NCBI GenBank assembly: GCA_028874795.1
Contig: JAPPHT010000027.1
Location: forward strand, 1 to 61,556
Source of the DNA: Chloroflexota bacterium
GTDB taxonomy: Bacteria > Chloroflexota > Dehalococcoidia > Lucifugimonadales > Australimonadaceae
Direction of reading: 5' to 3'
DNA: 61,556 nucleotides
A program made the position numbers and the translations under genes. The stretch's first letter is position 1. The number at the start of each line of letters is the position of its first letter. The notes under the pieces were generated by a model. That model was not told the origin of the DNA. It did no database searches and was given only the letters and a program-made list of their open reading frames with translations. Positions 11,936 to 54,990 of the stretch are shown in pieces.

Positions 11936-13180
11936 GTGAGCGTGCTGATGGAACGTGACCCTGAGATCGCGGAGGCCATACGGAAAGAGTCTGACCGGCA
12001 GCGCCGGAACATCGTGCTCATCGCATCCGAGAACTACGCGAGTCGTGCAGTGCTCGAGGCGCAGGGCTCCCCGCTGACGAACAAGTACGCGGAGGGCTAC
12101 CCCGGACGCCGCTACTATGGCTCCTGCGAATTCGTGGACATCGCCGAGCAGCTGGCGATCGACCGGGCGAAGGAGCTGTTCGGGGCCGAGCACGCCAACG
12201 TGCAACCCCATGCCGGAGCTGCCGCCAACATGGAGGCGTATGCCGCGCTCTGCGACATCGGCGACACGATCATGGGCCTGCAACTGGACCAGGGTGGACA
12301 CCTGACGCACGGCAGCCCCGTTAACTTCTCAGCCAAGTTGTACAACTTCGCCGCGTATGGCCTCGACCCCGAGACGGAGCAGTTGGACTACGACGTCATC
12401 GCGGCACAGGCGCGAGAGGTGCGCCCAAAGGTCATCGTGGCGGGGTATACGGCGTACCCCCGGACGATAGATTTCGCGCGCTTCGCGGAGATCGCGGAGG
12501 AGGTAGGCGCCGTACTGATGGTGGACATGGCGCACATAGCCGGGCTGGTTGCGGCTGGCGCGCATCCTTCACCGTTGCCCCACGCGTCGGTCGTAACGAG
12601 CACGACGCACAAGTCGCTGCGCGGGCCGCGGGGCGCGTTCATCCTCTGCACGGAGGAGCACAGACGCAACATAGACCGCGCGGTGTTTCCCTACGCGCAG
12701 GGCGGACCGCTCATGCACGCGATCGCAGCCAAGGCGGTCTGCTTCGGCGAGGCGCTCCAGCCGGAGTTCGCGGCGTACGGTCAGCAGATCGTTGAGAATG
12801 CGCGCGCGATGGCCGCGGCGCTCGAGGGAGAGGGACTGCGAATCGTTTCCGGGGGTACTGACAATCACCTGATGCTCGTGGACCTGCGTCCCCTCGGTTG
12901 GACGGGGCAGGAGGCGGAGGAGGCGCTCGGCAAGGTGCGCATCACGGTGAACAAGAACGCCATCCCGAACGACCCACAGCCCCCACGCGTCACGAGCGGC
13001 CTGCGGCTCGGCACCCCGGCCGTAACCGCCCGTGGCTTCGGGGTCGAAGAGTGCCAGAAGGTGGCTCAACTCCTCGTGCGGACGCTGAACAGCCGCGACG
13101 ACGCCGCGGCGCTCAGTGCCATCGCCGACGAGGTGGGCCAGCTGACCGCAGGCTTCCCCGTGCCGGGGCTCGACGACTAG
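11936..13180 (+). CDS. glyA: Serine hydroxymethyltransferase
   Basis: GlyA converts serine and tetrahydrofolate to glycine and methylene-THF, using PLP. The 414-aa product has the family blocks [34 protein letters not shown] and the PLP-lysine motif [13 protein letters not shown]. The GTG at 11936 is chosen because GAGGAG lies 7 bases upstream; an internal ATG (11948) is possible. The frame extends further upstream, but that part has no family similarity. The gene has its own roughly 230-bp upstream region. Confidence 0.95.
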
Positions 13181-13186
13181 GCACGG

Positions 13187-13217
13187 TTGTCGTTCCCACG
13201 GGCGCGCGTGCTATAAT
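13187..13217 (+). promoter_or_regulatory. Promoter of the rpsF-ssb-rpsR operon
   Basis: A perfect TATAAT (13212-13217) is preceded by TTGTCG (13187-13192) at a longish 19-bp spacing. It lies directly after the glyA stop and about 75 bp before rpsF. Confidence 0.6.
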
Positions 13218-13293
13218 CGCGAGACGCGCGGAAATGGCCGCGCGGTTTTTCGGTTCGGTCAGAGAAGGTCTGCAGAGCAAGAGGGAGTGTGGA

Positions 13294-13584
13294 GTGCGTC
13301 AGTACGAGTTGGTGATGCTGGTCCATCCGGATGCCGACGAAGAGCGGCTTGGCGCGGTCGTCGAGCGCGTGCGCCGCGTGGCGTCCGACCACGGCGGCGA
13401 CGTCGTGAGCGAGAACAACTGGGGCAGGCGCAAGCTCGCGTACAAGATTGGCCGCTTCACCGAAGCCAACTACCACCTCGCGAACATCGAGATGGAAGGC
13501 GCGGGAACGACGGTGCTGGAGAACTCTCTCAAGCTCAACGATGATGTCATCAGGCACCTGCTCATCCGACTGGACGAACAGTAG
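13294..13584 (+). CDS. rpsF: 30S ribosomal protein S6
   Basis: The 96-aa product begins at GTG 13294 (VRQYELVMLVHPDADEER) after GAGGGAG, and has the S6 features NNWGRRKLAYKIGRFTEANY and a C-terminal RHLLIRLDE. The open frame continues far upstream into glyA but has no family similarity there. It heads the conserved rpsF-ssb-rpsR block. Confidence 0.95.
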   Translation: MRQYELVMLVHPDADEERLGAVVERVRRVASDHGGDVVSENNWGRRKLAYKIGRFTEANYHLANIEMEGAGTTVLENSLKLNDDVIRHLLIRLDEQ

Positions 13585-47685: not shown

Positions 47686-50600
47686 GTGGAGACGCTCTTC
47701 GGCATACCCATCGGCACGCTGACCGCCGTCCTCACGGTCGTGTTCCTCGTCGCCGCTGTCGTGACAGCCTACTTCGTGCTGCGCAACCCCGTCGTACTGA
47801 AGATGGCGGTTCGCAACATCCCGCGGCGGCGATCGCAGACAGTGCTCATAGTCATCGGCCTCATGCTGGCAACGGTCCTCTTCTCGGCGTCGTTCGCCAC
47901 CGGCGACACACTCTCGCACTCGGTGCGCGTGCTGGTGGTCAAGCAGCTGGGTCATCTCGACGAGACCGTCTTCTCTGAAGAGCGGGATGCGTCCGGCATA
48001 CGGGCGTTCATGCCCGAGGAGACTGCCGACGCCGTCCGTTCGGCGCTCGTTGATGCCCCTGTCGACGGCGTGATGCCGGCGATCAGCCGGTCGGCGCCTG
48101 CCATATCGCTCGCGTCGGAGCGCAACGTACCCAGGCTGCAGGTGCAGGGGCTTGACCCCGCGCACACGGATGGCTTCGGGCGCTACCTCGATGCGGATGG
48201 CAGCGAACTCGACCTGGGGGCGCTCGGAAGGAACGAGTTGTACCTGAGCGCCGACGTCGCCGAGGACCTGCGCGCCGAGCCGGGGGACCGACTCGCCCTC
48301 TTCTTCGAGGAGATACCGGTGACGGTGAGCGTCGCGGGCGTCTTCGACGAGGGCGGCGCCACCAGCTCATCCTCCCCGTTGTCCGTGATGCGTCTGAGCG
48401 ACATGCAGGCGCTGCTGGGCGAGCAGGGGAACATCAACTTCGTCTTCATCTCGAATGAGGGCGATGCCATCTCAGGCGCGCGGCATACGGAAGCGGTGTT
48501 GGACGCCTTCGAGGACCTCCGCGAAGAACGCGGGCTCGACTACGACGACGTCAAGCGGGACGGCCTGGAAGAAGCGGATACGGTCGGCGACCAGTTCGCG
48601 AGCATCTTCCTGCTGTTCGGGACGTTCTCCATCATGGCGGGCATCCTGCTCATCGCGCTCATCTTCGTGATGCTGGCGGCGGAGCGGAAGCGCGAGCTGG
48701 GCATCTCGCGGGCAGTGGGTGCACAGCGCGGGGACATCGTGCGGCTGTTCACGTTCGAAGGAGCGGTCTACTCGCTCGCTGCTGCTGCGGTCGGCAGTGC
48801 ATTGGGCGTCGTGGTCGGTCTGGTCATGGTGCGCATCATATCTGCCGCGTTGGGGGCGATAGACGAGTTCGACGGCTTCGAGATCGTGTTCGCGTTCCGT
48901 TGGCAGAGCCTGCTGCTCGCCTACACGCTGGGGATGGTGGTGACCTACCTTGTGGTCGTCGTCTCAGCGGCACGGGTGAGCGCCCTGAACATCGTGCGCG
49001 CCGTGCGCGACATCCCGGAACCGCCCGGCGAGGGGCGCCGGCTCCGTGATTCGTGGGTTGCGGTGGGCGGCGCGTACCTGGACGGCCTGCGAGCGATACC
49101 GCGCCTGCGCCCGCTCCGCGTGCTGCGGCGGTTGTTGCTCAGTGGCCCGTGCGCCATCGTGAAACTGGCGTGGGCGCTGTTCATCGCCGGTTATCTCATG
49201 GTCGTGGTCGGTGTGCTGCTGACACTGAACGGCATATCGACCGAGCAGCTGGGACTCTTCTCCATCGGCCTGTCGCTCGTGGTGGTTGGCGTTCCCCTGG
49301 CGCTTAACCATGCCGTGCGGCTGCCGGACCGGATCGCGTACACGGCCGCCGGCGCGCTCCTTGTCCTGCTCTGGCTCCTTCCGATCGACTGGGAGGACTA
49401 CGGATTGCCCCGGTTCAACGCAGGGCTGGAGGTATTCATCCTCTCCGGCGTGACCATCGTGGTAGGGGCGGTCTGGGTGGTCATGTACAACTCGGGATAC
49501 CTCGTGAGCGCGATAACCGTCCTGGGAGGGAGAGGGCGCACGCTTGCGCCCATCATCCGGACCGCCCTGGCATACCCGATGGCCAGCCGCTTCCGCACGG
49601 GGATGACCCTGGCGATGTTCTCGCTCGTCATCTTCACGCTCTCGATCATCGGCTTCATCGATGCTGCGTTCAACAGTGCATTCGACGACACCCGGAAGTT
49701 CTCGGGCGGCTTCGATGTCACTGTCAACGCCAGCTTCACCAACCCTGTCGGCGACCTCGGTGCGCGCATCGACGAGTCCCCGGCACTGGACGCTGCCGGG
49801 TTCGCGGCCATCGGCGCAACGAGCGGCCTTCCCGTGCGCATCAGGCAGCAGGACACCGAGCAGGAGTTGGAGGACTGGTTCGTCACGAGCGTGGACCCCG
49901 CCTACGCGGAGGCCGTCGGCTACGGGTTCCTCATGCGGGACGAGCGGTACGCCGACGACCGCGCCGTCTGGCGCGCGCTGGCTGCGGGGGAGGAGGTCGC
50001 GGTCGTCAGCGCCGCCATAGTCCCCGCTGCTGCCGACTTCCAGCAGGGCGGCCCGGACTTCTCCTTCCAGTTGGAGGGATTCCAGCGCGAGGACGACGTG
50101 CTGCCCGAGGTGTACGTGGAGGTGTACGACTCCTCAGAGGAGCGGATGGTGCGCCTGCGCGTCATAGGCGTGCTGGAAGAGTCGGCTTTCTTCGTCAACA
50201 CGGTTACCACCGGGCACGACGTGCTGCAGCGGCTTGCGCCGGTGGACCTGCCGTACGTGGGTTACGAGATTGTCTTGAACGACCCGTCGCGTGCGGAGGA
50301 GGTCGCGGCGGCGCTGGAGGAGGCGTTCGAGGAGCACGGCTTGCAGGCGTCCTCGCTCGAGAAGATCGTGCGGGACCTCACTGCGCTGAACCGCACGTTC
50401 AACCGCCTCATCCAGGGCTTCATGGGCCTTGGTTTGGTGGTAGGTATCGCGGCGCTGGGCGTCATCGCGGCGCGCTCCGTCGTGGAGCGGCGCGTGCAGA
50501 TCGGCATATTGCGCGCTATCGGCTTCCGCAGCGGCATGGTGCAGCTCTCGTTCCTGCTCGAGTCCTCGTTCATCGCGCTGCTGGGTATCGTCGTGGGATT

Positions 50601-50799
50601 CGGCCTCGGTTTCGGATTGTCCGTCGACATCGTCAGCGAGATAGGCGAGAGCTTCGAGGGCGTCGAGTACGCGACTCCCTGGGAGACGGTCATCCTCGTG
50701 GCGGTCCTTGCGTACGGAGCGTCGCTGCTCACGACGTACCTGCCCGCGCGGCAGGCGTCGCGCATCTACCCCGCGGAAGCCCTCCGCTACGACGAATAG
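47686..50799 (+). CDS. Long FtsX/MacB-type ABC permease
   Basis: The 1037-aa permease carries two FtsX cores. The N-terminal unit has one helix, a MacB-type periplasmic domain (about 85-290) and three helices at about 305-440 (FVMLAAERKRELGISRAVGAQRGDIVRLF). A middle bundle of four to six helices (about 490-660) is followed by a second periplasmic domain (about 670-890) and a last FtsX core with RRVQIGILRAIGFRSGMVQLSF. This resembles the large Chloroflexota/Actinobacteria exporters. The GTG start is 3 bp after the ATPase stop. Its last 13 bases overlap the convergent diadenylate-cyclase-like gene. Confidence 0.92.
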   Translation: METLFGIPIGTLTAVLTVVFLVAAVVTAYFVLRNPVVLKMAVRNIPRRRSQTVLIVIGLMLATVLFSASFATGDTLSHSVRVLVVKQLGHLDETVFSEERDASGIRAFMPEETADAVRSALVDAPVDGVMPAISRSAPAISLASERNVPRLQVQGLDPAHTDGFGRYLDADGSELDLGALGRNELYLSADVAEDLRAEPGDRLALFFEEIPVTVSVAGVFDEGGATSSSSPLSVMRLSDMQALLGEQGNINFVFISNEGDAISGARHTEAVLDAFEDLREERGLDYDDVKRDGLEEADTVGDQFASIFLLFGTFSIMAGILLIALIFVMLAAERKRELGISRAVGAQRGDIVRLFTFEGAVYSLAAAAVGSALGVVVGLVMVRIISAALGAIDEFDGFEIVFAFRWQSLLLAYTLGMVVTYLVVVVSAARVSALNIVRAVRDIPEPPGEGRRLRDSWVAVGGAYLDGLRAIPRLRPLRVLRRLLLSGPCAIVKLAWALFIAGYLMVVVGVLLTLNGISTEQLGLFSIGLSLVVVGVPLALNHAVRLPDRIAYTAAGALLVLLWLLPIDWEDYGLPRFNAGLEVFILSGVTIVVGAVWVVMYNSGYLVSAITVLGGRGRTLAPIIRTALAYPMASRFRTGMTLAMFSLVIFTLSIIGFIDAAFNSAFDDTRKFSGGFDVTVNASFTNPVGDLGARIDESPALDAAGFAAIGATSGLPVRIRQQDTEQELEDWFVTSVDPAYAEAVGYGFLMRDERYADDRAVWRALAAGEEVAVVSAAIVPAAADFQQGGPDFSFQLEGFQREDDVLPEVYVEVYDSSEERMVRLRVIGVLEESAFFVNTVTTGHDVLQRLAPVDLPYVGYEIVLNDPSRAEEVAAALEEAFEEHGLQASSLEKIVRDLTALNRTFNRLIQGFMGLGLVVGIAALGVIAARSVVERRVQIGILRAIGFRSGMVQLSFLLESSFIALLGIVVGFGLGFGLSVDIVSEIGESFEGVEYATPWETVILVAVLAYGASLLTTYLPARQASRIYPAEALRYDE

Positions 50800-51995
50800 T
50801 CGACATCTGGCCAAGTCTTGATTGGTCGCGCTGAAAGCGAAAAACATCGTGAAGAGAACAGATTAGGGAACCGACAACAGGGACAGGCTACTGTTTCGTT
50901 ATCGCGCCATCCAAGAATCAACACTTCATCGACTCGAATATTTCGGTCACAACCAGGACACGTAACATCAAATGAACTGGTTGAAATATCTTCTGCTTTT
51001 GCAGGCACAGCCCTCTTCAATACTTCGGACACTATGCTTCCAATCGTAGCAGCCATTTCCGTAACTTTGTAGCCATCAGAATATATTGAAACAGGTCCAT
51101 CCTCGGATACTGCACAGACAAGAGTCTCAGGGTGTTCGAATGAAAATCTCTTGGCTGAAGTGTGCCGTGTACCTTTGTCAGGGGACACCCTCTCAGCAGT
51201 GCTATCTAGGTATGAGAGGTGAGCCCCAAGGTGCTCGATCAATCCTCCTGGGCCAACAATTACAGCCCCGTCGTGATACTGTACAACGTGTTCAATTATG
51301 GAGTAACTTGATTCGTCACTTATGTTGAGATTAAGACTCGTTAGATCTAGTCCAACCTTCGACAACCCAATCATCGTTTGTTCCGCTGGTCCAAATAGTC
51401 GCCAAACTAGCGTTGTACCGACTTTCTTGCTGCTCAGGAAGTAATAGGCGAGCTTCAGGAGCGAATAGAGTGATGTGTGATGCGAGTAAGGGATTGATCC
51501 GAAACACTGCCCAATAAGGGTTACATGTTCGACGAGAGGGCTCTTGCGCTCCCAAGTGCGATTCTCGACCAGCCATACTTCGCCGTTCTGAGCGATTCTT
51601 GTCGCCCCAGAGCCTTCTCTTTGAACGACGATCCCCTTCATCGAAAGTGACAGAGCCAATAGCCTTACCTCATCGGCGATGGCTGCTTTGAACACAGCAA
51701 GCTTGGGTCGTTCACTTCCTGAATAAACTACAAATGTTCTCCTGCCATCAGCGAGATGTCGTAACTCGTCTAATGGTAAGTGTGGCATAGGCACTATCTC
51801 TACGCCATCCTCCCTAGTGAGTTCATTCTTGCAGAATAGAATTCCAAGAGGAGTGATATTGCCTTCATGGCGTCTAGTGTACAGACAGGTCGCAATCTCA
51901 GCGACCATGGAATCGTAAGGGATTCCTGGAATTCGTAACAGTCTGAAGCTGTTGAGGGCCATCTCTTTCTTGACTACGTCAATTATTGAGGGCAA
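50787..51995 (-). CDS. Atypical diadenylate-cyclase (DisA_N-like) protein with C-terminal zinc ribbon
   Basis: The 402-aa product has a DAC-like core at about residues 235-320. QYHDGAVIVGPGG carries the DGA catalytic motif (242-244) and DKGTRHTSAKRFS (274-285) matches the RHR ATP-binding motif, except that the last Arg is Thr. The strand TLVCAVSEDGPVSIYSDG follows as in DacA/DisA. About 230 N-terminal residues form an unassigned, possibly sensory region. The end has CPGC (346, 349) and CPCC (371-374), a zinc-ribbon pattern. The gene is much AT-richer than its neighbours and ends inside the permease gene. TTG 51995 follows AAGGAGG; Met at 51962 is an alternative. Cyclase activity is not proven. 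Confidence 0.75.
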   Translation of the reverse strand: MPSIIDVVKKEMALNSFRLLRIPGIPYDSMVAEIATCLYTRRHEGNITPLGILFCKNELTREDGVEIVPMPHLPLDELRHLADGRRTFVVYSGSERPKLAVFKAAIADEVRLLALSLSMKGIVVQREGSGATRIAQNGEVWLVENRTWERKSPLVEHVTLIGQCFGSIPYSHHTSLYSLLKLAYYFLSSKKVGTTLVWRLFGPAEQTMIGLSKVGLDLTSLNLNISDESSYSIIEHVVQYHDGAVIVGPGGLIEHLGAHLSYLDSTAERVSPDKGTRHTSAKRFSFEHPETLVCAVSEDGPVSIYSDGYKVTEMAATIGSIVSEVLKRAVPAKAEDISTSSFDVTCPGCDRNIRVDEVLILGWRDNETVACPCCRFPNLFSSRCFSLSARPIKTWPDVDYSS

Positions 51996-52192
51996 GGTGC
52001 CTCCTTATGCCACAAGTTATCGCCTAGACTTATTCTGTACCGTTTATAGACACATTGTAACTCCCTCCCTATAGGTTCGTCTCCTCCCAGTGGGTTTCAC
52101 ACATGACTGCTGCCTGAAGTACAGGGTCCGCCGCTGATGCAGAATCAACCGCCCGTTGAGCGGCACTGAGAAGGTGCTATAGGCTCCAGGCC

Positions 52193-52534
52193 ATGAGGGA
52201 ATCGCACAAGCAGGCTTGGATAGCCGTCGCCATCATCGTTGGCATCCTAGGCCTGCTTTGGGTTCTCGATGATCGTGAGGATCGAGGGTGGGAGCGCGGG
52301 TATTTCCAAGGGATCTCAGAGGGATTCGAATATGGGTATGGGTTCGGGTCCTACTCGGAGTGCGTGAGAAAGGCCGCCTATCCCGGAGCGCGGTTCACAA
52401 GAGATGACTGTAGGCTCTTTGAGGAGCACTGGGAGCACTTCGACGAGGTGCTGCGGCGGAGTGATGCTGGCATTCCCAGCCCATGGGAAGGAGGGCCGCC
52501 ATACCGGCACCCCCATCCCTTAGCCAGACGGTAG
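52193..52534 (+). CDS. Small single-pass membrane protein
   Basis: The 113-aa product has one hydrophobic N-terminal helix (about residues 9-25), then a polar, aromatic- and Gly-rich part (YFQGISEGFEYGYGFGSYSEC) with two Cys. No family was recognised. The ribosome site is weak (AGGCTCCAGG). It lies in the accessory island next to the diadenylate-cyclase-like gene. Confidence 0.5.
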   Translation: MRESHKQAWIAVAIIVGILGLLWVLDDREDRGWERGYFQGISEGFEYGYGFGSYSECVRKAAYPGARFTRDDCRLFEEHWEHFDEVLRRSDAGIPSPWEGGPPYRHPHPLARR

Positions 52535-52728
52535 CCCTGTCTGCCGCCCAATCATCTGCTGGGCTCAAATTCGGCCGCTCCTGTGGCGGCGTCAGTGGCC
52601 CTGCTCCTCCTTGGTTGCATCGAGAAACGGGCACCTGATGCAAAGTCGTACGCCTCCGGGATTCTTCGTCGAAGCCTCTACCGGACTGCCGAACCGTTCA
52701 CCTTGTCAGATGGGCTCATCGCGCCCAG

Positions 52729-52819
52729 GTCCCCCATTCTGATTGCATTGTGATACCGCCATTGACCCACTTCGATAACGCTGTGATTGCGCTGTCCCAC
52801 CATTTCGGTAGCGTCGTGC
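52729..52819. mobile_element. Possible IS21-type end: three imperfect repeats of about 30 bp
   Basis: Three units begin GTCCCCCATTCTGATTGCAT (52729), TGACCCACTTCGATAACGCT (52763) and GTCCCACCATTTCGGTAGCG (52794). Repeats of this length and spacing resemble the multiple IstA-binding terminal repeats of IS21-family elements. No istA or istB remains, so only an end or scar is left. Confidence 0.35.
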
Positions 52820-52884
52820 CAGCCCCCGCCATGCCGGGCGCCGCCCGCGCTTTAGCGCGCAACCTCGCAGCCTTGCCTGCCAGC

Positions 52885-52938
52885 TGTCATGCTGAGCGGA
52901 GCTGAAGGCGCAGCCTGAAGCGCAGTCGAAGCATCTCT
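52885..52938. repeat. Interspersed repeat of the GTCATnCTGAGCGGAG type
   Basis: TGTCATGCTGAGCGGAGCTG is followed by a CGAAGCATCTC ending. This is a widespread dispersed palindromic element in many bacterial genomes. Only one copy is visible here. Confidence 0.5.
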
Positions 52939-53075
52939 CAGTGTCCTGTCCCTTCCCCCTCAACCCCGGCCAGTCAATATTGTGACACGCGCCCGTTGCA
53001 CAGGCAACCGTCTCTCCCTTACGCTGGTTTCAGGCAGGTACGTCACGCAGGTTGGCGGGAAAGGAATGCTATCAA

Positions 53076-53477
53076 ATGGTATCGATCGGCACGTTTGGAA
53101 ACAGTCGGAGCCTCACTCCGAGGCAGGCCGGGGCTCTCCCCCACATCGTCGCCGCTCCTTCCCTCAGGAAGGGTGCGCGCGCCGCTGGCCTCAGCTACAC
53201 CACCGTCGCACGCTGGATGCAGGACCCGCGCTTCCGCGCCGAGGTCGAACGTGCGAGGCAGGCCCTCTCCTCCGTCGTCCACGCCAGGCTCCAGGAACTC
53301 CTCCTCCTCGGCGCCGCCAATCTCGAGGAGTTCCTCAACTCCGACGACACGCCGACCCGCCTCCGCGCTACCCGCATCGCCTTCGACATCGCGCTCAAGG
53401 CCGAACTCAACAACGACCTCCGCAAGCGCCTCGACAACCTCAACAAGGCCTTCAAACTGATCAAGGAGACCCGATGA
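53076..53477 (+). CDS. Helix-turn-helix small protein
   Basis: The 133-aa product has a homeodomain-like HTH (about residues 30-62: APSLRKGARAAGLSYTTVAR), then a long helical segment (ELLLLGAANLEEFLNS). It resembles phage-type small HTH proteins such as terminase small-subunit-like or phBC6A51-like proteins. ATG 53076 follows AAAGGA; the frame begins eight codons earlier. It overlaps the next gene by ATGA. Confidence 0.6.
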   Translation: MVSIGTFGNSRSLTPRQAGALPHIVAAPSLRKGARAAGLSYTTVARWMQDPRFRAEVERARQALSSVVHARLQELLLLGAANLEEFLNSDDTPTRLRATRIAFDIALKAELNNDLRKRLDNLNKAFKLIKETR

Positions 53478-53833
53478 ACGCCAACCTCAAAGCCCTCGAA
53501 TCGCTGCTCCAGTGCCCCATCAACCAGATGGCCTTGGAGCCCATCGTCAACGACTACGTCGAATCGTGGAAGCGCTGCATGGAGCACGGCGAACCTCTCA
53601 CCGACCCCGACGAACTCATCGCCGTCGTCGAGTCCGAAGGGATCCCAGTACTGGTCTCAGGCCCCCTCTGGAGCTACCTCGACCAGTGCGCCGAGGACTA
53701 CCGCGTGCCCGACCCGCGCCGCGTCATCACCACAATCGTCCACGGATACGCCGAGGTCAACTTCATGACCGGCCCGTGCCCCTGTCCCCTCCGCCGACCC
53801 CTCGGATCCGGCCTGCTGACCCGTTGGAAATGA
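53474..53833 (+). CDS. Hypothetical partner of the HTH protein
   Basis: The 119-aa acidic product starts at an ATG overlapping the HTH stop, with AAGGAG upstream, so the two are translated together. It has no signal or membrane segment. The C-terminus includes CPCPLRRP. No family was recognised. The pair could be a small regulatory or phage-derived module. Confidence 0.55.
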   Translation: MNANLKALESLLQCPINQMALEPIVNDYVESWKRCMEHGEPLTDPDELIAVVESEGIPVLVSGPLWSYLDQCAEDYRVPDPRRVITTIVHGYAEVNFMTGPCPCPLRRPLGSGLLTRWK

Positions 53834-53868
53834 GCGCCGCTATGCACCCCGCCTTTGCTGGAGCGCCC

Positions 53869-54990
53869 CTACCGCGCTGCCGCGCCGTTGACCTTGGCGA
53901 CAAGCCGGTCGAGGTGGAACGGCTCCATCGTCATCGGACCGCCGGCGCGGCCGTTCCGCCACGCCACGATCTCCGACACGATGCTGAGCGCGATCTCCTC
54001 CGGCGTCCGTCCGCCGAGATCCAGGCCCACCGGCGCGTGTATCTCCCGCAGCCGCTCCTCCGGAACGCCCTTCCGCAGCAGCGACTCGTAGATCATGATC
54101 GTCTTGCGCTTGCTGCCCAGCAGCCCCACGTAGCCCGCGTTCGTGCGCGCCGCCGCCTCGGTCGCCAGGTCGTCGAAGTGGTGCCCGCGCGAGCCGATGA
54201 CGATGGCCGTGTTCGGCGTTACGGGGAATGCGTCCACGCCCCGGTCGTACGGCGCGACGTTCGTCGCCTCCGCCATCGGGAAGCGCTCATTGTTCGCGAA
54301 CTCGCGGCGGTCGTCGGTCACCATCACGCGGAGGCCCATCATGTGCCCGATGCGCGCGACCTGCAGGTTGACGTGGCCCCCGCCGATGAGCACGAGCAGC
54401 GCCGGCGCTGTGTAGCCCTCCACGAACAATTCGTCGCCTTGGTCGGTGTGGATGCGGGCGGTGCGCCCCATCGGCATCACGTCCTTGGCGGTCTCGATCG
54501 CCTCGGCGTCCAGCGCGGCGTCGCCGAGCGTCCCCTCGGACGTGCCGTCCTCGCGGACGACGATGCGCGCTCCTTGTGCGAGGCGGTCGCTCTTGACGAG
54601 CGTCGCGACGGAGAGGCTGGGGCCTCCGGCGTAGGCGTCGGCGATCTCGGCGGAAAGCGCCCGTCCGTCCGCGTCGCCGGTGAGCGGCTCGATGTAGAAG
54701 TACATCGTCCCGCCGCAGACCAGGCCGTCGCGTGCGGCGATGTCCTCGTTCAGGTAGTAGCGCTTGTACTGCGGGCCGGTGTTCTCGCGGAGCGCTTCCT
54801 TGGCGGCGAACCAGATGTCGCCCTCGACGCAGCCCCCGCCGAGCGTGCCGACGGTCGAGCCGTCGCCGCGCACGAGGAGCGCCGCGCCCGGCTTCTGCGG
54901 CGTCGACCCCTGCGTGTGCACGACGGTCGCGATGACGAAGTCCTGCCCGTCATGCGTCAGCGCTGTTGCTTCGTCGTAGACGGCCTTCAT
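53869..54990 (-). CDS. XdhC/CoxI-family molybdoenzyme maturation factor
   Basis: XdhC-type proteins bind molybdenum cofactor and insert it, usually after sulfuration, into xanthine-dehydrogenase-like enzymes. The 373-aa product has the N-terminal TVVHTQGSTPQKPGAALLV with GGGCVEGD, a middle linker and the Rossmann-type C-domain (LLVLIGGGHVNLQVARIGHMMG, VTDDRREFANNERFP, GYVGLLGSKRKTIMI, HAPVGLDLGGRTPEEIALSI). The length is normal. No oxidoreductase subunits are adjacent. It fits with moeA and the MocA-like gene in this window. Confidence 0.93.
   Translation of the reverse strand: MKAVYDEATALTHDGQDFVIATVVHTQGSTPQKPGAALLVRGDGSTVGTLGGGCVEGDIWFAAKEALRENTGPQYKRYYLNEDIAARDGLVCGGTMYFYIEPLTGDADGRALSAEIADAYAGGPSLSVATLVKSDRLAQGARIVVREDGTSEGTLGDAALDAEAIETAKDVMPMGRTARIHTDQGDELFVEGYTAPALLVLIGGGHVNLQVARIGHMMGLRVMVTDDRREFANNERFPMAEATNVAPYDRGVDAFPVTPNTAIVIGSRGHHFDDLATEAAARTNAGYVGLLGSKRKTIMIYESLLRKGVPEERLREIHAPVGLDLGGRTPEEIALSIVSEIVAWRNGRAGGPMTMEPFHLDRLVAKVNGAAAR

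What the first reader, a model, noticed from the sequence alone, without database searches (positions are those of the whole stretch)
50787..51995. Atypical diadenylate-cyclase-like protein with a zinc ribbon in an AT-rich insert
Seen: DGA and GTRHTSA motifs of DAC domains in a 402-aa protein with about 230 unassigned N-terminal residues and a C-terminal CPGC/CPCC pair; composition far more AT-rich than flanks. Known: most DAC enzymes are DisA, CdaA or CdaS; DAC domains with extra sensor domains have been proposed in prokaryotic conflict systems. Inference: a horizontally acquired nucleotide-signalling protein, possibly for defence or stress. The RHR-to-RHT change makes activity uncertain.
Basis: partly seen in the sequence, partly recalled or inferred. 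Interest (0 to 1): 0.75.

Follow-up and report, generated by a model that had tools for sequence, protein, structure and literature searches.

The report
Acquired cyclic-dinucleotide synthase with degenerate twin
A foreign-looking gene in a bacterium whose relatives lack this enzyme encodes a probable signal-nucleotide synthase with a worn-out second copy of its own enzyme domain and a zinc-binding tail, and several clues suggest it serves in defence against viruses.

Summary
In detail: a 402-aa ORF on the MINUS strand, 50787-51995, with Pfam DACNK (residues 26-151), DAC (186-308) and a CxxC/CxxC tail. RHT is a clade trait: DGA and GTRHT stand in all 12 clade members. The DAC fold is confirmed (pLDDT 92, Z 14.8 to DisA).

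The DACNK 'probable sensor', folded alone, resembles only DAC enzymes. So the protein reads as degenerate DAC + active-looking DAC + zinc ribbon. This rests on structure; profile comparison does not detect it.

The gene is foreign: 47.6% GC, lowest of 604 tiles, the only DAC in 98 genomes. Its slot holds Dsr1, a defence gene, in a sister species. Relatives sit beside CBASS or inside an Ssp operon; four Bdellovibrionota relatives sit in phosphorelay loci.

Best reading: an acquired c-di-AMP synthase gated by a pseudo-DAC, probably in defence. DAC-CBASS association and a DAC essential for defence are published. Activity and defence are untested here.

The parts
50787..51995 (-). DACNK-DAC-zinc-ribbon protein, 402 aa; its stop lies inside the last 13 bases of the convergent FtsX gene
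51543..51920 (-). DACNK domain (residues 26-151), DAC-like fold; A82-D83-G84 lies about where DGA lies in DAC
   Evidence: Pfam PF21753 E 3.5e-17; model alone pLDDT 94.6; Foldseek rows 1-43 all DACs; VIA rows 1-39 all DACs, Z 7.9-6.2, next row 3.3
51072..51440 (-). DAC domain (residues 186-308)
   Evidence: PF02457 E 1.9e-13; VIA Z 14.8 to T. maritima DisA 4yxm, 133 residues, 2.5 A
51264..51272 (-). DGA motif, residues 242-244
   Evidence: invariant in 12 of 12
51159..51173 (-). GTRHT motif, residues 275-279
   Evidence: invariant in 12 of 12
50874..50960 (-). C-terminal ribbon C346-x2-C349 ... C371-x2-C374
   Evidence: both CxxC pairs in 11 of 12 clade members; no Pfam ribbon model over its cut-off
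52000..52006 (-). Shine-Dalgarno-like AAGGAGG upstream of the TTG start
   Evidence: read
52193..52534 (+). 113-aa ORF inside the insert, function unknown
53052..53477 (+). 141-aa terminase-small-subunit-like ORF (possible phage remnant) inside the insert
   Evidence: PHROG 4044 E 4.6e-5
50800..53865 (.). insert between the FtsX and XdhC genes; its content differs in each of three resolved genomes of the genus
47686..50799 (+). left flank: FtsX-family permease, conserved in sister species
   Evidence: PF02687; 93% to G004, 89% to G005
53869..54990 (-). right flank: XdhC/CoxI-family protein, conserved in sister species
   Evidence: PF13478, PF02625

Best explanation
The gene encodes a probably active diadenylate cyclase, acquired horizontally as accessory cargo. 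Its central DAC domain would make c-di-AMP from two ATP when two such domains meet face to face. Its N-terminal DACNK domain is a degenerate DAC domain: an Asp-Gly at the place of the DGA site is kept, the GTRH phosphate-binding motif is lost. I propose it docks on, or competes for, the face of the active DAC and so gates catalysis until a ligand is bound. The zinc ribbon would supply nucleic-acid or protein contacts. The likely role is anti-phage or other conflict signalling. Shown: domains, motifs, fold, foreign composition, patchy distribution, slot shared with Dsr1, neighbours of relatives. Inferred: enzymatic activity, gating by DACNK, what is sensed, and the defence role.
For: DAC identity: PF02457 over cut-off; model pLDDT 92.2; Foldseek DisA E 1.4e-6; VIA Z 14.8, 2.5 A over 133 residues to DisA with c-di-AMP. 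Motifs: DGA and GTRHTS invariant in 12 of 12. DACNK as a degenerate DAC; the only segment hhalign aligns, E 0.4, falls in the expected structural register, residues 121-138 with 291-308. Foreign and accessory: lowest-GC tile of 604; DACNK in 1 of 98 relatives and 1 of 400 phylum genomes, the window's genome itself in both; DAC of any kind in 1 of 98, again itself. Defence: in sister species G004 the same FtsX/XdhC slot holds a 1173-aa SIR2 protein, PADLOC Dsr1 E 2.7e-76, also AT-rich, 49.4% against 67%. In Nostoc linckia the homologue follows Cap15 and a CD-NTase on the same strand. In cyanobacterium G965 it lies between SspD and a MORC/MzaB-like ATPase, near SspB and SspC. Published: a DAC with catalytic residues essential for defence in system DS-2 (PMC13092281, passages read).
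Against: PADLOC has no model that matches the protein. No CBASS gene is found in the window by tblastn with the Nostoc CD-NTase and Cap15. All four Bdellovibrionota homologues lie beside response-regulator and Hpt genes, an ordinary signalling context. Two cyanobacterial homologues (L105, L106) and the Acidimicrobiia set show no clear defence neighbours. The slot is resolved in only 3 of 6 genomes and one occupant is an MFS-like transporter. Sequence-profile comparison does not support DACNK-DAC homology (E 0.4 and 0.27), and a VIA Z below 8 can reflect a common arrangement. No activity has been measured.
Confidence: 0.5

Rival explanations
1. An ordinary environmental or stress-signalling cyclase, controlled by a two-component phosphorelay in its original host and carried here by chance. 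The DACNK domain is a plain ligand sensor.
For: Response-regulator and Hpt genes flank the gene in 4 of 4 Bdellovibrionota loci (L004, L006, L007, L079). The Acidimicrobiia homologues lie among housekeeping genes.
Against: The window has no two-component gene beside it. The slot, the AT-rich composition and the Nostoc and G965 contexts point to accessory defence cargo.
Confidence: 0.28
2. An inactive relic or nucleotide-binding regulator: the RHT change and the degenerate N-terminal domain mean it binds but does not synthesise.
For: Replacing the whole RHR motif by AAA abolishes activity in M. tuberculosis DisA/DacA (PMC3328451, abstract and passages read). The DACNK domain itself lacks GTRH.
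Against: T279 is invariant in 12 of 12 clade members with DGA and GTRH intact, which is not how a decaying site looks. An otherwise canonical CdaA-type enzyme, L044, also carries GTRHT. The ORF is intact.
Confidence: 0.12
3. A guard enzyme of Panoptes style: it constantly makes a cyclic dinucleotide that holds a Cap15/2TM-beta effector silent, and phage sponges that remove the nucleotide release the effector.
For: The window's genome encodes a Cap15-family 2TM protein on contig C39 (PDLC00703 E 7.9e-53) after a CD-NTase whose reading frame lacks about 80 internal residues. In Panoptes a constitutive cyclic di-AMP inhibits a Cap15-like effector (PMC12657230 and PMC12657218, passages read).
Against: Panoptes uses 2',3'-c-di-AMP from mCpol, whereas DACs are known to make 3',3'-c-di-AMP (recalled); only partial stabilisation of 2TM-beta by 3',3'-c-di-AMP is reported. 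Here DAC and effector are on different contigs. In DS-2 loss of DAC activity removes defence; a guard would predict toxicity instead.
Confidence: 0.1

Closest known systems
DACNK-DAC proteins (Pfam PF21753 + PF02457)
   Same: Both domains over cut-off; same order; found here in Cyanobacteria, Bdellovibrionota, Planctomycetota and Actinomycetota.
   Different: A C-terminal zinc ribbon (11 of 12 in this clade; absent in L103 and in most Acidimicrobiia rows), and location in a lineage without other DACs.
DS-2, a phospholipase + cGAS + DAC anti-phage system (PMC13092281, passages read)
   Same: A DAC tied to CBASS-like defence; the Nostoc homologue lies beside Cap15 and a CD-NTase.
   Different: The window's DAC stands alone; whether the DS-2 DAC carries DACNK was not determined here.
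DisA
   Same: DAC fold, DGA and GTRH motifs.
   Different: DisA NCBIfam model 12.1 bits against a cut-off of 201; here the partner domains are DACNK and a ribbon, and GTRHR reads GTRHT.
CdaA/DacA
   Same: DAC fold and motifs.
   Different: CdaA NCBIfam model 23 bits against 188.8; a DAC-like domain precedes the DAC in place of membrane helices.
Panoptes (mCpol + 2TM-beta; PMC12657218, PMC12657230, passages read)
   Same: A cyclic-dinucleotide maker and a Cap15-family effector in one genome.
   Different: The cyclase is a DAC, not a Cas10-like mCpol; no operon links the two here.

Membership tests
DAC domain (PF02457) | Profile score over the curated cut-off | tested here: met
   50.5 bits against 27
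DAC domain (PF02457) | DAC fold | tested here: met
   VIA Z 14.8, rmsd 2.5 A, 133 aligned residues, DisA 4yxm
DAC domain (PF02457) | DGA motif | tested here: met
   Residues 242-244, 12 of 12 in the clade
DAC domain (PF02457) | RHR motif, exact | tested here: not met
   RHT in 12 of 12; a natural variant, also in CdaA-type L044
DAC domain (PF02457) | Synthesis of c-di-AMP from ATP | not testable with these tools
   Needs purified protein
DACNK-DAC family | DACNK domain N-terminal to DAC | tested here: met
   PF21753 62.9 bits against 27, residues 26-151, then DAC 186-308
DAC fold, for the DACNK domain itself | Structural match standing clear of unrelated folds | tested here: met
   VIA best row Z 7.9, 3.5 A, 119 aligned; rows 1-39 DACs (Z down to 6.2), next row Z 3.3; Foldseek rows 1-43 DACs, best E 4.5e-3. 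Z under 8 alone would not be enough
DAC fold, for the DACNK domain itself | Sequence-profile similarity to DAC | tested here: inconclusive
   hhalign E 0.4 and 0.27; positive control DAC against DAC E 3.4e-12
DisA | Score over the DisA equivalog cut-off | tested here: not met
   12.1 against 201 bits
CdaA | Score over the CdaA equivalog cut-off | tested here: not met
   23 against 188.8 bits
Zinc ribbon | Two conserved CxxC pairs | tested here: met
   11 of 12 clade members; L103 lacks the region
Zinc ribbon | Match to a known ribbon family over its cut-off | tested here: inconclusive
   Best for the window protein DUF7560, 13.7 against 27 bits
CBASS | CD-NTase and Cap effector in the same locus | tested here: not met
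   None in the window by tblastn with the Nostoc pair; a Cap15 + gapped CD-NTase pair lies on another contig
Panoptes | mCpol cyclase next to a 2TM-beta effector | not tested
   No mCpol search of the genome was made

The most novel reading that the evidence does not exclude
The protein is a pseudo-heterodimeric cyclase: a degenerate DAC (DACNK) permanently tethered to an active DAC as its own gate. In this bacterium, which has no other DAC, it is the nucleotide source for a Cap15-type membrane effector encoded on another contig, whose own CD-NTase frame lacks about 80 residues, including the segment that holds the third catalytic acid in the Nostoc enzyme. It would be a split immune system of an acquired DAC plus an orphaned CBASS effector.
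Probability: 0.1. Interest if true: 0.85.

Novelty: new variant of a known kind. Interest (0 to 1): 0.6.

Why it matters
If DACNK is a degenerate DAC domain, a Pfam family labelled only as a 'probable sensor' gains a testable mechanism: DAC domains need a face-to-face partner, and this enzyme carries a broken partner in the same chain. That would resemble pseudo-enzyme control in other cyclases and would explain how c-di-AMP synthesis can be held off until a trigger arrives. If the defence reading holds, it adds a stand-alone, single-gene DAC to the conflict systems, in a bacterial order where no other genome examined has a DAC (1 of 98, the window's own). c-di-AMP would then serve there as an immune signal and not as a housekeeping messenger.

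Tried and rejected
Searches that found nothing: plasmids and phages by tblastn at E 1e-5; plasmids at E 10 gave two weak hits, one of them a CdaA; plasmids with the Nostoc homologue; viral contigs with five different queries; BFVD structures, nothing at E <= 0.001; PADLOC and PHROGs for the protein itself. Promoter and terminator scan 0 found, fewer than in shuffles. No convincing repeats bound the insert. Profile comparison of DACNK with DAC was negative. The word DACNK occurs in 0 held papers. Galperin 2023 (cited in PMC13092281) and Burroughs 2015 are not held, so I could not check whether either already describes the ribbon, the DAC-like fold or these neighbours.

Rejected: degenerate DAC because of RHT (clade-wide trait). 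DisA or CdaA orthologue. Membership in CBASS at this locus. The Nostoc CHAT-DAC as a close relative: it is a separate protein with DNA in place of DGA.

Not used: the pTM of the full model suggests a defined inter-domain pose, but no coordinates were available, so I make no claim about how DACNK and DAC pack.

Mistake: the FtsX query was translated out of frame (window 49800-50799); it still located the gene in all six genomes, and I used only the positions. ORFs of loci in scripts were picked greedily by length, so some listed in GC-rich loci are not genes; neighbours named in this report rest on family matches, or on blastp links where so stated.

Full report
OBSERVATION. The ORF at 50787-51995 is real and lies on the minus strand: 402 aa, TTG start. 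A Shine-Dalgarno-like AAGGAGG sits four bases upstream (52000-52006, read). Its stop lies within the last 13 bases of a convergent FtsX-family gene (47686-50799). Pfam finds DACNK, 'probable sensor domain', at residues 26-151 (62.9 bits, cut-off 27) and DAC at 186-308 (50.5 bits, cut-off 27). The C-terminus holds C346-x2-C349 and C371-x2-C374. The gene is 47.6% G+C, the lowest of 604 tiles of its length in the window (mean 65.9%, sd 3.2).

FOLD. A 33-row alignment gave a model with mean pLDDT 92.2 and pTM 0.85. Its DAC part matches DisA with c-di-AMP bound: Foldseek E 1.4e-6 and VIA Z 14.8, 2.5 A over 133 residues. The DACNK domain was then folded alone from 21 rows (pLDDT 94.6). Foldseek's rows 1-43 are all DAC structures, best E 4.5e-3, none below 0.001. 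VIA's rows 1-39 are all DACs, Z 7.9 to 6.2 (best 3.5 A over 119 residues), and the next row drops to Z 3.3. The match covers nearly the whole domain in order. By secondary structure (my reading), A82-D83-G84 of DACNK (invariant or nearly so) falls about where DGA falls in DAC, and the helix that begins with GTRH in DAC begins near E109 in DACNK, with no Arg-His. Against this, profile-profile comparison is not significant (E 0.4 and 0.27), while DAC against DAC gives 3.4e-12. The one short segment hhalign does align with this family's DAC (121-138 with 291-308) is in the register the structures suggest. I read DACNK as a degenerate DAC domain with about 0.8 confidence, on structure alone.

ACTIVE SITE. 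In the 12-member clade that holds the window protein (support 98/95), DGA and GTRHTS are invariant (12 of 12). A CdaA-type protein met on the way, L044, also reads GTRHT. Replacing all of RHR by AAA kills the M. tuberculosis enzyme (PMC3328451, abstract and passages), but that does not speak to R-to-T alone. In the same tree a group of 12 actinobacterial-type rows carries GMRHR, all with DLA in place of DGA in the alignment; those may be the altered ones.

DISTRIBUTION. DACNK occurs in 1 of 98 relatives and 1 of 400 genomes of the phylum (the two sets overlap), each time only the window's own genome. No other genome of the 98 has any DAC domain, and the window's genome has just this one. DACNK was found in 6 of 388 genomes of the order of the Nostoc homologue (1 of 244 in a phylum-wide draw), 4 of 191 of the Bdellovibrionota homologue's phylum and 1 of 392 of the Planctomycetota homologue's. 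A GTDB contig scan returned 42 loci, most of L008-L034 titled Actinomycetota. The tree used 39 rows; of the 42 loci I left out L034-L044 (partial, or DAC region only) and added L058, L079 and the five further cyanobacterial ones. The zinc ribbon is in 11 of 12 clade members. The window protein has a long branch and at most 32% identity to any row.

SLOT. The gene lies between FtsX and XdhC genes, 3.1 kb apart. In sister species G005 the same two genes are 1.3 kb apart and enclose a 419-aa MFS-like protein (MFS by eye). In G004 they are 3.6 kb apart and enclose one 1173-aa SIR2 protein, PADLOC Dsr1 E 2.7e-76, Pfam SIR2_2 E 1.8e-25, itself AT-rich (49.4% against 67%). G003 and G002 end at contig breaks, and in G001 the two genes are far apart. 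So 3 of 6 genomes resolve the slot, each with different cargo, one a known defence gene. The window's insert also holds a terminase-small-subunit-like ORF (PHROG 4044 E 4.6e-5).

NEIGHBOURS OF THE 11 RIBBON-BEARING PROTEINS. Nostoc linckia L045: CHAT-DAC, Cap15 (Pfam E 3.3e-33), CD-NTase (PADLOC E 5.7e-99), then DACNK-DAC, all on one strand. Cyanobacterium L104: SspB (8.4e-123), SspC (E 0), an HNH protein, SspD (2.5e-114), DACNK-DAC, a MORC/MzaB-like ATPase (1.2e-16), on one strand, with one opposite-strand ORF (12504-13460) between SspC and the HNH protein. L107: a phage-type integrase nearby. L004, L006, L007, L079: a divergent response regulator upstream and an Hpt gene downstream in 4 of 4, by Pfam or by blastp to the Pfam-matched ones. 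L005: a large helicase/methylase protein with an intein-like segment upstream. L105 and L106: no clear theme (L105 has a PD-(D/E)XK protein upstream). The window itself: Dsr1 slot. So 2 of 11 are directly embedded in defence loci, the window's slot is a third hint, and 4 of 11 are in phosphorelay loci.

OWN GENOME. A SMODS search hit contig C39 below cut-off. The stretch there holds a CD-NTase frame of 214 aa (PDLC00788 E 6.6e-65) directly before a Cap15-type 2TM protein (PDLC00703 E 7.9e-53; 40% identical to the Nostoc one) and a KAP-like NTPase (PDC-S20 E 1.3e-100). Both genes hit the same top PADLOC models as the Nostoc pair. The CD-NTase frame lacks residues 130-212 of the Nostoc enzyme without a frameshift, including a KADVVV stretch that I take, from recalled knowledge of nucleotidyltransferases, to hold the third catalytic acid. 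It may be inactive, or mis-assembled.

LITERATURE. DefensePredictor (PMC13092281; passages) reports DS-2, phospholipase + cGAS + DAC, in which mutation of either of two DAC catalytic residues ends defence, and 15 of 30 homologues of that DAC lie with CBASS; it credits Galperin 2023 with noting the association. Panoptes papers (PMC12657218, PMC12657230; passages) describe the opposite logic, a constant cyclic di-AMP that silences a Cap15-like effector. DACNK appears in 0 held papers, and one search for tandem, degenerate or pseudo-DAC wording returned one paper, on Chlamydia development, seen only as a listing. The library is partial, so I do not claim that the DAC-like reading of DACNK is unpublished.

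VERDICT. A new variant of a known kind: a horizontally acquired DACNK-DAC protein with a zinc ribbon, probably an active cyclase, in which the 'sensor' looks like a worn-out second DAC. Defence is the best single reading of its context but not secure (0.5). The phosphorelay context of the Bdellovibrionota copies is the strongest evidence for something broader.

Noticed in passing
L045 5764-8184 (+), Nostoc linckia; L035 7931-10309 (+), Methylococcaceae: CHAT-DAC fusion proteins beside Cap15-type effectors. In L035 no CD-NTase was found by tblastn with the Nostoc enzyme, and a second, weak DAC protein (751 aa, 21.2 bits, below cut-off) lies upstream, so DAC may be the nucleotide source there.
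   Followed up: partly
G000 contig C39 (L108 2899-5613): CD-NTase frame with an in-frame gap of about 80 residues, a Cap15-type effector and a KAP-like NTPase; a serine-recombinase-like ORF precedes them (the recombinase call is by eye).
   Followed up: partly
L075 1831-5352 (+), sister species G004: AT-rich single-gene Dsr1 (SIR2) insert in the same FtsX/XdhC slot.
   Followed up: yes
L009, L011, L013, L016-L018, L023-L026, L029, L030: Twelve actinobacterial-type DACNK-DAC rows with GMRHR and DLA for DGA: a possible paralogue group with altered activity; L014 has GMRHR with DGA.
   Followed up: no
L007: Record titled Nitrosovibrio, yet its genome (G493) appears in the phylum draw of the Bdellovibrionales genome G490 and the protein groups with Bdellovibrionota: a likely mislabelled MAG.
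   Followed up: partly
L104 8960-17105 (-): DACNK-DAC embedded in an Ssp (phosphorothioation-type) defence run.
   Followed up: yes
L044 9482-10705 (+): CdaA-type DAC of a Planctomycetota MAG with GTRHT in place of GTRHR.
   Followed up: partly
window 53474-53833 (+): 119-aa ORF after the terminase-like ORF, no family match in Pfam, PADLOC or PHROGs.
   Followed up: no
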